Positions 23,417-61,843 of a stretch of 64,000 nucleotides of DNA are shown in pieces; position 1 is the first letter of the stretch, and each line of letters opens with the position of its first letter. A program made the translations under genes and the position numbers. The notes beneath the pieces are model-generated. The model was not told the DNA's origin, ran no database searches, and saw only the letters and a program-made list of their open reading frames with translations. Source of the stretch: Oleispira antarctica RB-8 (GTDB taxonomy: Bacteria > Pseudomonadota > Gammaproteobacteria > Pseudomonadales > Oceanobacteraceae); assembly GCA_000967895.1 (NCBI GenBank), contig FO203512.1:3657531-3721530 (forward strand), read 5' to 3'.

Positions 23417-23442
23417 TATCTTTCGATAAATAGAAGAGAGGA

Positions 23443-23543
23443 ATGACTAGGTAATTGTGAAGCAAATATGAGAGGCAGGGATTGCCGAATCTAAGGCTAC
23501 AGGGAAGTATTCATGCCGTTTTGTGGAATAAATACCTATTCAT
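23443..23543 (+). repeat. Dispersed CTACAGGGA element, copy A
   Basis: Core GGCTACAGGGAAGTATT at 23494-23510, preceded by GAGGCAGGGATTGCCGAA and followed by GCCGTTTTGTGGAATAAATAC. Outer arms 23443-23466 and 23520-23543 are inverted repeats (about 17 of 24 positions, with ATGA.TAGGTA shared). It sits between the SDR and thiolase genes. Confidence 0.75.
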
Positions 23544-23596
23544 GGATCGTTTTATAAACCTAATAAATAGTTACTCATTTTTTACGAGATATTTCT

Positions 23597-35909: not shown

Positions 35910-35973
35910 AATGTTATATTCTCATTCAAACTTTTAAAGAAACAGTATTGGTTTTTAAATCGATGCAAAATTA

Positions 35974-36085
35974 AGTAATTGCTTCCACAAAACGGCGTAA
36001 ATACTTCCCTGTAGCCTTGGGCTCGGCCAGTCGTTGCAGGTTTTCACGCCGCTACGCTCCATGCCTCACACATTTGTTCCACAAA
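35974..36085 (-). repeat. Dispersed CTACAGGGA element, copy B
   Basis: On the minus strand: GTTTGTGGAACAAATGTGTG, GAGGCATGGAGC, an insert not present in the other copies, then CCCAAGGCTACAGGGAAGTA and TTTACGCCGTTTTGTGGAAG. The arms are weaker inverted repeats than in the other copies. It sits between allA and guaD. Confidence 0.7.
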
Positions 36086-36158
36086 CACTCAATCCTGCCT
36101 CTTATGAATTCATAAAATTCAATAATGTTTCTTTTTCAAAATTTCTAATAGTTACTTA

Positions 36159-36719
36159 TTAACAAGTAATCTGAATTTTTACATCTTCACCGAAGAAATA
36201 TTCTTCACAATTATTACCACCACCTTTACGATCGACCACAAGGAAATCACATACCTTGTTCAATCCTAATACTGGGTGATGCCAAGTATTTTTGTGGTAA
36301 TTAATACCTTGGTCGGCACGGGCAATAAACAAGTGAAGATTTTCAGGGGTTAGCTCTTCAACCGCATCGGCCACCAGCACCAAATACTCTTCACCAGAAA
36401 GCGGGTGAAAAGATTGGCTACCAAACGGATGACGTTCAACCATTTCGATATCCATGGCTAAATCTTTAGAGACTGGGCGAGGCTGCGCACGGAAGATATT
36501 AATCACAGCGTGAGTTTCACTCTTGCCACCAGCCGCTTCTAATTCAACATTTACCAAAGAGTCATAACGTTCGGTATTGCCACCATTAATCATGATCAGG
36601 CTGCTATCAGCAGAACCATCTTGCGCACTTTGTTTTGCATCTGGCACTTCAACCACATCACCAAAAGCAGCAAACGCTTCTTTGGTTAATGGCAGGGGCG
36701 TTAATTTATATTCTTTCAC
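36159..36719 (-). CDS. allA: Ureidoglycolate lyase
   Basis: 186 residues, cupin-fold enzyme releasing urea and glyoxylate from ureidoglycolate. Recognisable parts are LTKEAFAAFGDVVEVPDA, MVERHPFGSQSFHPLSGEEYLVLVA, HLFIARADQGINYHKNTWHHPVLGL and CDFLVVDRKGGGNNCEEYFF. It is the last step of the allantoate branch with Alc. It is in line with uraH (36-bp gap), so probably co-transcribed. E. coli AllA is about 160 residues; this one is somewhat longer. Confidence 0.93.
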   Translation of the reverse strand: MKEYKLTPLPLTKEAFAAFGDVVEVPDAKQSAQDGSADSSLIMINGGNTERYDSLVNVELEAAGGKSETHAVINIFRAQPRPVSKDLAMDIEMVERHPFGSQSFHPLSGEEYLVLVADAVEELTPENLHLFIARADQGINYHKNTWHHPVLGLNKVCDFLVVDRKGGGNNCEEYFFGEDVKIQITC

Positions 36720-36755
36720 AATTATTCTCTTTAAAAGAAATTTCTTAACTAGAAG

Positions 36756-37100
36756 CTAGCTACCACGGTACGTAGAGATGCCGAATGCAGAAACCAATAG
36801 AGGCACATGATAATGCTCATCTGGGTTTTCGATACGGAAATCAAAAGTAACTGTTGGGAAAAAACAAGACTTACCCTGTTTTTCAAAGTACGGGTCCGTC
36901 GCAAATTCGATGCGGTAGATACCCGCTTCGCGTTGCTGCCCCTCCATCCAATCAACTATGCGGCCATCTTTATTGGTTTCACCAGCAGCAATCTTTTGAT
37001 ACTGCTTATCTGCGTCTAGTTTAAAAAGTACTACTGCTACACCCACAGCAGGTTTGCCAAGGTTGGTATCTAAAACGTGAGTCGTAATTGGGCTGGCCAT
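36756..37100 (-). CDS. uraH: 5-hydroxyisourate hydrolase (transthyretin-like)
   Basis: 114 residues. The N-terminal ITTHVLDTNLGKPA and C-terminal YHVPLLVSAFGISTYRGS are the diagnostic HIUase motifs. The catalytic His10-equivalent is in TTHV, an Arg in the central sheet, and the His and Tyr-Arg-Gly-Ser at the end. It hydrolyses the 5-hydroxyisourate made by PuuD. No signal peptide, so it acts in the cytoplasm. It follows uraD after a spacer carrying repeat copy C. Confidence 0.96.
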   Translation of the reverse strand: MASPITTHVLDTNLGKPAVGVAVVLFKLDADKQYQKIAAGETNKDGRIVDWMEGQQREAGIYRIEFATDPYFEKQGKSCFFPTVTFDFRIENPDEHYHVPLLVSAFGISTYRGS

Positions 37101-37150
37101 GTTCTTACTCTTCTTTTTAAGTTCGTATTTCTAATTAACCAATAAGAAAA

Positions 37151-37282
37151 CATTATTATGTGTTTGTGTAGCGAATATGCGAGGCATGGAGGCCGAACCT
37201 AAGGCTACAGGGAGCGCCAGCGCTATGAATACATACAATAGCTGGTATTTACGCCGTTTCGCGGAATAAATACATAATAATG
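37151..37282 (+). repeat. Dispersed CTACAGGGA element, copy C, with long inverted arms
   Basis: Inverted arms 37151-37175 and 37258-37282 match at about 20 of 25 positions (CATTATTATGT shared exactly). The core holds GAGGCATGGAGGCCGAACC, AAGGCTACAGGGAGCGCCAG and GTATTTACGCCGTTTCGCGG. It sits between uraD and uraH. Confidence 0.8.
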
Positions 37283-37317
37283 CTTTCGTTTCTATCGATG
37301 AAATTCATCTAATTATT

Positions 37318-55143: not shown

Positions 55144-55177
55144 AAAAAAACCCTAATAGACGACCTATTAGGGTTTT
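55144..55177. terminator. Bidirectional rRNA operon terminator
   Basis: CCCTAATAG and CTATTAGGG flank a 5-nt loop. AAAAAAAA on the left and TTTT on the right make it functional in both directions. It lies 8 bp downstream of the second 5S gene on the minus strand. Confidence 0.85.
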
Positions 55178-55185
55178 AGAATAAG

Positions 55186-55304
55186 AGCTTGACGATGACC
55201 TACTCTCACATGGGGAAACCCCACACTACCATCGGCGCTACTGCGTTTCACTTCTGAGTTCGGGATGGGTTCAGGTGGTTCCACAGTGCTATTGTTGTCA
55301 AACA
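55186..55304 (-). rRNA. rrf: 5S rRNA, second (distal) copy
   Basis: 119 nt. Conserved 5S core is clear, including the complement of GGTAGTGTGGGG and CCATGTGAGAGTAGG. The 5' and 3' ends (TGTTTGACAAC and the trailer AAGCTCTTATTC) pair. It differs from copy 1 at only a few bases near the 5' end. It lies behind a terminator of its own. Confidence 0.93.
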
Positions 55305-55411
55305 AACTTTGATGCTTTGTTCGTGTCTTATGCGCTTCTCTTATGAGTGGCTGCATTCACTTGGCAAATAGGGTCATACACAGTTGGTTTTTCTAAACCA
55401 ATCTTTACTGA

Positions 55412-55462
55412 AAAAAAATCCCCAACACACTCTCTATTTAAAGAGAATCTGTTGGGGATTTT
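55412..55462 (-). terminator. Terminator between the two 5S genes
   Basis: AATCCCCAACA and TGTTGGGGATT arms pair around an AT-rich loop that contains a second small CTCT/AGAG pairing. On the minus strand the hairpin is followed by a run of eight T. Confidence 0.8.
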
Positions 55463-55470
55463 AGAATAAG

Positions 55471-55589
55471 AGCTTGACGATGACCTACTCTCACATGGGG
55501 AAACCCCACACTACCATCGGCGCTACTGCGTTTCACTTCTGAGTTCGGGATGGGTTCAGGTGGTTCCACAGCGCTATTGTCGTCAAGCA
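55471..55589 (-). rRNA. rrf: 5S rRNA, first (proximal) copy
   Basis: 119 nt with the canonical gammaproteobacterial 5S sequence. Ends TGCTTGACGACAATAGCGC and GGTCATCGTCAAGCT pair to form helix I. It is 224 bp downstream of the 23S 3' end on the same transcript. Confidence 0.95.
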
Positions 55590-55812
55590 AACCTTGATGC
55601 TTAGTGATTGTCTTATTGCACTTCTCTTGCGAGTGGCAGCAATCGTTCAGCAAATAGGGTCGGATACATGATGTGGTTTTATCTTAGTGTTAATTCTCTG
55701 CTTCGACTTGCGTCTTCAGCTTAATATTAGAGTGTGTGCTTATCAGTTGTTCTGATCTTACAACACCACCGCTTGTCTTTACCTTGGTATAGACGCGCAG
55801 TTTTGGTGTTAT

Positions 55813-61152: not shown

Positions 61153-61442
61153 CCGATTCCTGTAAATATATTACAAAAGAGTGAAATGAATTCAAAAACC
61201 ACCAAAACTGCTTAGTTATCGTACGAATTCTGGCTAGGAACTAGAGGATAGTTGGGATTTGAGTAGATTCAAGGTGGCTTCAAGATGGTGTCAAGAAAGA
61301 TGAATGTATTTTAAAAAAATTCAAAAACAAATACCTAGTGCGAAAATAAGTACCTATATCTATATAGACGCACATCTACCTAAAAAAGACTTATACGCTT
61401 TTGTAATCCTAAAAAACGCCGTAATTCAACGTTTTGGTATGC
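61153..61442. other. AT-rich region upstream of the rrn promoters
   Basis: 290 bp with no credible gene. At 61268-61300 there are three consecutive 11-mers of the type TTCAAG(G/A)TGG, the third degenerate, one helical turn apart. A possible factor-binding region upstream of the rRNA promoters. Confidence 0.4.
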
Positions 61443-61561
61443 GCTGTATCGGGTAATTCCTTTTCTGGGACGCCGTAAATACGCCGCTTCGCTCTCCCTG
61501 TAGGCTTGGCCCCCGCATCCCTGCGGCGTGAACACCCATAAAACGAACCACCCGATACAGC
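61443..61561 (-). repeat. Dispersed CTACAGGGA element, copy D, with 27-bp inverted arms
   Basis: Arms 61443-61469 and 61535-61561 match at 23 of 27 positions (GCTGTATCGGGT shared exactly). On the minus strand the core has GCAGGGATGCGGG, AAGCCTACAGGGAG and GCGGCGTATTTACGGCGT. The inner GCCGC/GCGGC pairing extends the hairpin. Confidence 0.8.
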
Positions 61562-61685
61562 ACCACAAATTCTTATATAAGCGCAAGGAAGGTTTATTAT
61601 TCTAAATAAAGACGGCTTATCATTTACCGATAAGCTGCGTTGCTATAAAGAGAAAGGCTTTTTCAGATTTCTAAAGCAGAAGTGA

Positions 61686-61843
61686 TTTGCGGTGAGTGAT
61701 GGAGATTAATTTTGTAGGACGTCTAAAAGAGGGATCTTTTAGCGAGCTACAGGGAGCGCTAGCGCCGTGAATTCCTGGAGCGGCTGGTACCTTGCAGCGC
61801 TCCGTACAAAATTCAATCTCCATCGCGAACGCAAGCAAATTGC
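61686..61843 (+). repeat. Dispersed CTACAGGGA element, copy E, with long inverted arms
   Basis: GATGGAGATTAATTTTGTA (61698-61716) is mirrored by TACAAAATTCAATCTCCATC (61805-61824), and the similarity continues outward through ATTTGC (left) and GCAAAT (right). The core GCTACAGGGAGCGCTAGCGC and GGCTGGTA parallels copy C. An additional internal hairpin CTAAAAGA/TCTTTTAG lies at 61723-61742. Confidence 0.8.

What the first reader, a model, noticed from the sequence alone, without database searches (positions are those of the whole stretch)
37151..37282. Each repeat copy has long inverted arms whose sequence is unique to that copy
In copies A, C, D and E the core is bracketed by inverted repeats of 19-27 bp: A shares TAGGTA, C shares CATTATTATGT, D shares GCTGTATCGGGT, E shares GATGGAGATT. 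Arms match each other within a copy but not between copies. Ordinary transposon ends would be conserved across copies. Either the elements insert into pre-existing palindromes such as terminators, or the hairpin shape is preserved while sequence drifts (compensating change or template-switch repair). Structure-guided insertion of a small element would be unusual.
Basis: partly seen in the sequence, partly recalled or inferred. Interest (0 to 1): 0.75.

Follow-up and report, generated by a model that had tools for sequence, protein, structure and literature searches.

The report
Mobile hairpin repeats resembling CsrA-binding RNA
These repeats look like members of a family of small mobile DNA pieces, related to a known Yersinia repeat, whose RNA would fold into a long stem topped by two hairpins shaped like docking sites for the bacterial regulator CsrA; the matching arms belong to the element and change together to keep the stem paired.

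Summary
The arms are real. C, D and E beat 100 of 100 shuffles; A and B alone are weak. 'Unique to each copy' is only partly right: C, D and E differ, but A shares arms with two copies outside the window, D has an identical twin, and young families share arms.
The repeats belong to a large gammaproteobacterial family: a variable outer stem (the arms) around two hairpins, P2 and P3, both of the CsrA/RsmA type (ANGGA loops), usually 20 nt apart. Covariation is strong. Across diverged copies arm wobbles are G-U, not A-C (83:29), pointing to RNA pairing on one strand; 40 young units show no such excess (19:31).
Arms travel with the unit: at one Methylotuvimicrobium site the empty allele has no palindrome, and two differently ended units carry the same core. 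Close neighbours lie head-to-head (24 of 30).
The published Yersinia YPAL/RU-2 repeat contains the core; Rfam TwoAYGGAY, a predicted CsrA binder, scores below threshold.
Best reading: a mobile RNA module presenting a dual CsrA site. Binding, expression and effect are inferred; window copies are partly degenerate.

The parts
37151..37168 (+). copy C, left arm (P1, 5' strand)
   Evidence: sequence; fold; arm test; orthologues in G002, G003, G004
37183..37194 (+). copy C, hairpin P2, GGC-AUGGAG-GCC (intact ANGGAN hexaloop)
37203..37255 (+). copy C, hairpin P3 (GGC-UAC-AGGGA ... GUA-UUUAC-GCC), split by about 31 nt (37214-37244) after AGGGA; the insert is absent in the orthologues in G002, G003 and G004
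37265..37282 (+). copy C, right arm (P1, 3' strand)
23440..23560 (+). copy A (model match 23452-23532, 50.7 bits); arms and outer flank shared with own-genome copies F and G; arms weak alone
35955..36110 (-). copy B (model match 35979-36087, 48.9 bits); P2 split by about 31 nt (36027-36057) after AUGGA; P3 intact (UAC-AGGGAA-GUA); arms weak alone, plus an outer inverted repeat
61438..61565 (-). copy D (model match 61457-61549, 58.8 bits); P2 intact (CCGC-AGGGAU-GCGG), P3 split by 12 nt (61483-61494) after AGGGA; head-to-head with E, upstream of an rRNA operon
61690..61840 (+). copy E; P2 intact (CUAAAAG-AGGGAU-CUUUUAG, closed by G-C), P3 remodelled; not matched by the model itself, but its paralogues at 1117.4 kb and 455.2 kb score 55.9 and 53.8 bits

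Best explanation
Each repeat is one copy of a structured RNA module carried by small non-autonomous mobile elements in Gammaproteobacteria. P2 and P3 each match the CsrA/RsmA recognition hairpin, and their GGA motifs usually lie 20 nt apart, so one CsrA dimer could bridge both. P1 holds the two together; mainly its pairing matters, so its sequence drifts with compensating and G-U changes and looks unique in old copies. Shown here: the structure, covariation, G-U bias in diverged copies, arms that travel with the unit, one insertion into a site without a palindrome, and one core shared by units with different ends. Inferred: CsrA binding, transcription, and the effect (a decoy for CsrA, or an RNA landing site on transcripts that cross the insertion).
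For: Covariation in 74 aligned copies: 89.7% of cells paired against 63.4% shuffled, 594 doubly changed cells against 185, 0 of 500 shuffles as high. P2 loop GGA in 74 of 74 and A before N in 72 of 74; P2 was not in the search pattern. In the window's genus, where P3 was not fixed by the pattern, apical and basal triplets are complementary in all 33 recognised of 41 copies, five and four types. CsrA SELEX consensus RUACARGGAUGU, mostly six-nt loops; bridging at 10-63 nt with an optimum over 18 nt (PMC7652899, passages); [quoted passage not shown] GGA-GGA spacing 20 nt in 62 of 74. G-U 83 against A-C 29, p = 3e-7 on cells; 38 copies with more G-U, 7 with fewer, 26 ties. The CTACAGGGA strand folds better than its complement in 9 of 9 own-genome copies tested. 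csrA found in 53 of 54 module-bearing genomes against 189 of the other 222. Empty and filled alleles and two unit types at one locus. Yersinia YPAL has the same core plan.
Against: No expression or binding data. In 40 distinct young type-1 units, departures from the majority arm pair give G-U 19 and A-C 31 (end repeats 8 and 13, core 16 and 7), so no RNA-level bias shows in the arms of young copies. Orientation against neighbouring genes is random (++13, --14, +-15, -+12 of the 54 copies that lie clear of a predicted ORF and have both neighbours), so many copies would be transcribed only as antisense unless they have promoters of their own; I did not look for these. The Rfam sRNA family Ysr224 matches the opposite strand. 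No window copy keeps both loops clean: B has an insert in P2, C and D in P3, E's P3 is remodelled, A's P2 loop is 7 nt. Element-bearing G218 has no csrA hit (draft). The conserved UUYACGGCGU in and after P3 is not explained by CsrA. 21 of 95 non-redundant copies were left out of the alignment by hand, and at least three of these lack GGA in P2, so 74 of 74 leans in favour. csrA-less genomes are few, so the csrA tally is weak support.
Confidence: 0.67

Rival explanations
1. A core-only element inserts into pre-existing palindromes (terminators or other dyads), so each copy inherits its arms from its target.
For: Arms differ between most copies. YPAL targets are said to span or adjoin areas of dyad symmetry (PMC2229807, passages). 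G003 has a small palindrome without a core where G002 has an element.
Against: Young units share arms inside shared outer ends. The empty site in G323 has no palindrome. G-U bias in diverged copies. The coreless palindrome in G322 appears to keep a remnant of the left arm, as a deletion product would. No preference for gene ends: flanking orientations random.
Confidence: 0.1
2. A REP/REPIN-like DNA repeat moved by a RAYT (Y1) transposase; the hairpins matter as single-stranded DNA.
For: Head-to-head doublets (18 of 19 close pairs in the genus; 24 of 30 in other loci) recall REP dimers; GTAG lies beside P2 on the minus strand; 5 of 6 genomes of the genus, but not the window's, have a Y1 match, and these five have more copies.
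Against: CTAC/GTAG is replaced with compensation (CCC/GGG, TAT/ATA, CTC/GAG, TCC/GGA). None of the six fetched loci with Y1 matches (about 1.5 kb flanks) contains the module. The G-U bias favours the other strand.
Confidence: 0.06
3. The stems act only as long RNA hairpins (RNase III sites, mRNA stabilisers or insulators), and the ANGGA loops are coincidental or bind another protein.
For: Long stems; YPAL might influence upstream RNA stability according to a review. The conserved UUYACGGCGU lies outside any known CsrA site.
Against: Two separate loops keep ANGGAN on closed stems while the stems change, with spacing suited to a CsrA dimer.
Confidence: 0.17

Closest known systems
YPAL / RU-2 (Yersinia palindromic sequence, 167-168 bp; De Gregorio 2006, Delihas 2007)
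   Same: The printed RU-2 sequence holds the same core: P1 GUAAAG/CUUUAC, P2 CCGCGCC-AAGGAU-GGCGCGG, P3 GCC-UAC-AUGGAU-GUA-UUUAC-GGC (fold). Mobile, intergenic, inverted repeats internal.
   Different: Outer sequence differs from the window copies and from both Methylotuvimicrobium unit types. The passages read mention neither CsrA, nor this core in the genera seen here, nor head-to-head pairs; De Gregorio 2006 itself was not seen.
TwoAYGGAY RNA (Rfam RF01731)
   Same: Poorly conserved outer stem plus two ANGGAN hairpins; proposed CsrA-binding RNA (PMC4333381, passages).
   Different: The one copy that matches (L104) scores 36.4 bits, under the gathering score of 43; no match in the window copies. 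P3 architecture differs; not described as mobile in the passages read.
Ysr224 (Rfam RF02770, Yersinia sRNA)
   Same: Covers the module: L091 51.2 bits, L029 48.7 bits. Listed among the most prevalent bacterial sRNAs and as temperature-responsive (PMC9029176, passages).
   Different: Modelled on the opposite strand; matches here are below its gathering score of 70.
REPIN / GTAG-tagged REP dimers
   Same: Head-to-head doublets of palindromic repeats (PMC3733652, passages).
   Different: No fixed GTAG, no Y1 gene found nearby, RNA-type covariation.
CsrB/RsmZ-type sponge RNAs
   Same: A(N)GGAX loops on C-G closed stems (RsmZ).
   Different: Only two sites per unit, dispersed and mobile; no promoter or terminator looked for or shown.

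Membership tests
YPAL/RU-2 superfamily (same core) | P1-P2-P3 core with ANGGA loops and UUYACGGCGU | tested here: met
   Sequence printed in PMC2759123 Table 1b compared by eye and by fold; window copies A-D match model R1, E does not itself
YPAL/RU-2 superfamily (same core) | same 168-bp outer sequence as YPAL | tested here: not met
   Outer ends read differently in the window copies, Methylotuvimicrobium types 1 and 2 and G102 (by eye)
YPAL/RU-2 superfamily (same core) | mobility with empty and filled sites | tested here: met
   One locus in Methylotuvimicrobium, five species; for the window copies only inferred
Rfam TwoAYGGAY RF01731 | score at or above gathering threshold | tested here: not met
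   36.4 of 43 bits for L104; none in window
CsrA-binding RNA | ANGGA in hairpin loops, in pairs | tested here: met
   for the family; the window copies have one clean loop each
CsrA-binding RNA | binds CsrA/RsmA | not testable with these tools
   needs gel shift or CLIP
REP/REPIN | conserved GTAG tag at hairpin foot | tested here: not met
REP/REPIN | associated RAYT gene | tested here: not met
   no Y1 match in the window genome; no module in the six loci with Y1 matches in the genus
MITE | terminal inverted repeats and target duplication | tested here: met
   Methylotuvimicrobium type 1 (TTAG, CTAA) and type 2 (TA); own copies F and G show only candidate ends

The most novel reading that the evidence does not exclude
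Unrelated miniature transposons across Gammaproteobacteria have repeatedly taken up the same dual CsrA-binding RNA module, so that some genomes carry tens of dispersed CsrA landing sites: a distributed sink or insertion-taming device that ties transposon load to the Csr/Rsm network.
Probability: 0.3. Interest if true: 0.85.

Novelty: new variant of a known kind. Interest (0 to 1): 0.62.

Why it matters
It joins three things kept apart in the papers seen here: Yersinia YPAL repeats, the predicted CsrA-binding TwoAYGGAY RNA, and anonymous hairpin repeats of many gammaproteobacterial genomes. If CsrA binds, mobile elements would be a large unrecognised set of Csr/Rsm targets, and the question why small repeats persist becomes testable. 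It also shows how 'unique' arms can arise by drift under pairing, without insertion into palindromes.

Tried and rejected
Terminator or 3'-UTR element: neighbouring gene orientation is random. RAYT-moved REP: no Y1 match in the window genome, no module near Y1 matches in sister species, CTAC not conserved. Rfam on the window: only rRNA at gathering score; nothing meaningful at relaxed score around B, C, D and E. Plasmids: no match for copy C or for the Pantoea pair. E. coli: 5 of 5426 genomes, partial matches; the three looked at lie in a block beside IS genes, no use for empty sites. Viral contigs: one hit, L024, without P2, taken as chance. Paper search for a core 15-mer: none.

Selections and mends that affect counts. 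From 95 non-redundant copies I left out 21 by hand, mostly for irregular P2 or spacing; by eye L088, L097 and the second L113 copy lack GGA in P2 and L033 is irregular. Searches used 116 copies, including the probable chance hits L024 and L115; one search dropped these two, kept 88 of 114, and used the 71 of them with arm score 12 or more. In one search the loop ANGGAN was required by the pattern, the complementarity of the triplets was not; 8 of 41 copies were not recognised. In one search four of 74 spacings (8 or 13 nt) are probably mis-picked GGAs. The pair count (26 of 31) included an overlapping pair and a partner with E = 4.2 and missed one '++' pair; one search gives 24 of 30. One search's B score came from an outer inverted repeat; one search tests the near arms. 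One search counted wobbles against L228, which is atypical at one pair; one search counts against the majority. Copy numbers are lower bounds (150, 16 and 40 candidates scored per genome). One search counted 40 distinct rows of 42. My confidence went from 0.70 to 0.67 because young units show no G-U excess.

Full report
Observation. The window is a 64-kb stretch of a one-contig 4.41-Mb genome. Copy C at 37151-37282 has the stated arms and folds far better than shuffles (z -4.3). Five copies lie in the window: A 23.45 kb (+), B 36.0 kb (-), C 37.2 kb (+), D 61.5 kb (-), E 61.75 kb (+). With 42-nt flanks, no shuffle of 100 reaches the arm score of C, D, E, or of F, G, H, J elsewhere in the genome; 3 do for A and 4 for B. 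The covariance model finds 13 matches in the whole genome (A-D among them, E not).

Are arms unique? Between C, D and E yes. But A shares arms and further flank with F and G, D has a copy identical over 121 bp, and sister-species orthologues of C have the same arms with changes. So arms are inherited with the element.

What the repeat is. A pattern from the core found 119 stretches in genome contigs before the scan stopped; the 80 titles shown all name gammaproteobacterial groups (taxonomy recalled). Aligned (74 of 95 non-redundant copies; 21 left out by hand), they give an outer stem P1, hairpin P2 and hairpin P3. All 13 P1 pairs and all 10 P2 pairs have double changes; 594 doubly changed cells against 185 in shuffles. 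P2 ends in C-ANGGAN-G: GGA 74 of 74, A before N 72 of 74, closing pair C-G in 69 of 74, while its stem varies freely; columns 17/45 covary, CG 43 and UA 26. In the genus, with P3 not fixed by a pattern, apical triplets are UAC/GUA 24, CCC/GGG 4, UAU/AUA 3, CUC/GAG 1, UCC/GGA 1 and basal ones GCC/GGC 13, GGC/GCC 13, GCU/AGC 5, GUC/GAC 2, in 33 recognised of 41 copies.

Strand. In arms of 71 non-redundant diverged copies, wobbles are G-U 83 and A-C 29 (p = 3e-7 if cells are independent; 38 copies with more G-U, 7 fewer, 26 ties). In the nine own-genome copies they are 24 and 1 (42-nt flanks). A DNA palindrome gives no reason for this. The CTACAGGGA strand folds better than its complement in 9 of 9 own-genome copies. 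Against this, 40 distinct young type-1 units show 19 G-U and 31 A-C departures from the majority arm pair: there the bias is absent. I read this as drift in young copies and selection in old ones, but that is an inference.

CsrA. The SELEX site is RUACARGGAUGU, mostly with a six-nt loop, and CsrA bridges two sites 10-63 nt apart with an optimum over 18 nt (PMC7652899, passages); ANGGAX hexaloops directly on a stem contribute to high-affinity RsmE binding (PMC4005645, passages). P3 is typically UACAGGGANGUA; the two GGAs are 20 nt apart in 62 of 74. In a sample of 276 genomes of the window's class, 54 have the module, and csrA is found in 53 of these and in 189 of the other 222. This is a match of form; binding is not shown.

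Mobility. One locus in five species: G323 empty, without a palindrome; G262 with the type-1 unit flanked by TTAG; G319 with a type-2 unit at a TA about 20 bp away, with other ends and the same P2-P3 core; G322 with what looks like a deletion derivative at that TA, keeping the ends and perhaps a piece of the left arm; G320 with no element at either site. The likeness of type 1 to IS5 and of type 2 to IS630/Tc1 is recalled, not tested. Within 42 type-1 units arms are nearly the same, and one arm pair is T-A in 26 and C-G in 16, never mixed. G102 units have yet another outer sequence.

Pairs. Neighbours within 400 bp are head-to-head in 18 of 19 pairs in the genus (on 154 listed matches) and in 24 of 30 among L025-L143. 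Flanking genes show no preferred orientation, around pairs (+-7, --6, ++5, -+4, four open; the 26 pairs) or single copies. The reason for the pairing is unknown.

Window copies. None keeps both loops clean: C, D and E have P3 enlarged after AGGGA, B has P2 enlarged after AUGGA, A has a 7-nt P2 loop. C's orthologues in G002, G003 and G004 lack the insert. The window shows partly decayed or remodelled members.

Known relatives. The RU-2/YPAL sequence printed for Yersinia contains the core (PMC2759123, passages including Table 1b; fold). A review says YPAL makes duplications of 3-26 bp, that its targets span or adjoin dyad symmetry, and that it is recently mobile (PMC2229807, passages). TwoAYGGAY was proposed as CsrA-binding (PMC4333381, passages; table row in PMC2864571); the one module copy that matches it falls below threshold. 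Ysr224 matches on the opposite strand. I found no paper that links YPAL to CsrA: none of the 12 listed holds YPAL (110 held three of the five terms, so this is not exhaustive), and one search gave one unrelated paper; most subscription papers were not searchable.

Verdict. The arms are the outer helix of a mobile RNA module and co-evolve. The module looks made to bind CsrA. Why miniature transposons carry it is open.

Noticed in passing
61438-61840 and own genome 455.2 kb, 1117.4-1117.7 kb, 1380.4 kb: Copies sit about 0.8 kb upstream of 16S genes at four places (D/E, L146, L144, L151), and one lies about 0.3 kb downstream of a 5S gene (L148).
   Followed up: partly
37214-37244, 36027-36057, 61483-61494: Inserts that begin GCG or GAGCG lie at the same place, just after the AGGGA/AUGGA loop, in copies B, C, D, F and H; L233 has a different insert in a P2 loop.
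   Followed up: no
35955-37290: Copies B (-) and C (+) flank two minus-strand ORFs (36159-36719 and 36756-37100, purine-catabolism genes by recall) about 1.07 kb apart; the same arrangement recurs in G003 (L184).
   Followed up: partly
L183:1393-1472: G002 carries an extra minus-strand element 54 bp from copy C's orthologue, in a tail-to-tail pair; G003 has a short palindrome there instead.
   Followed up: partly
55171-55616: Two 5S rRNA genes in tandem (94% identical repeat, spacing 285) at the end of the rRNA operon.
   Followed up: no
L217, L218, L219: Five wastewater E. coli records carry one copy; in the three fetched it lies beside an alcohol dehydrogenase gene, a threonine ammonia-lyase gene and IS genes.
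   Followed up: no
window genus, G000-G005: The window genome has the fewest module copies of its genus sample (13 against 25-59, lower bounds) and is the only one of six without a Y1_Tnp match.
   Followed up: partly
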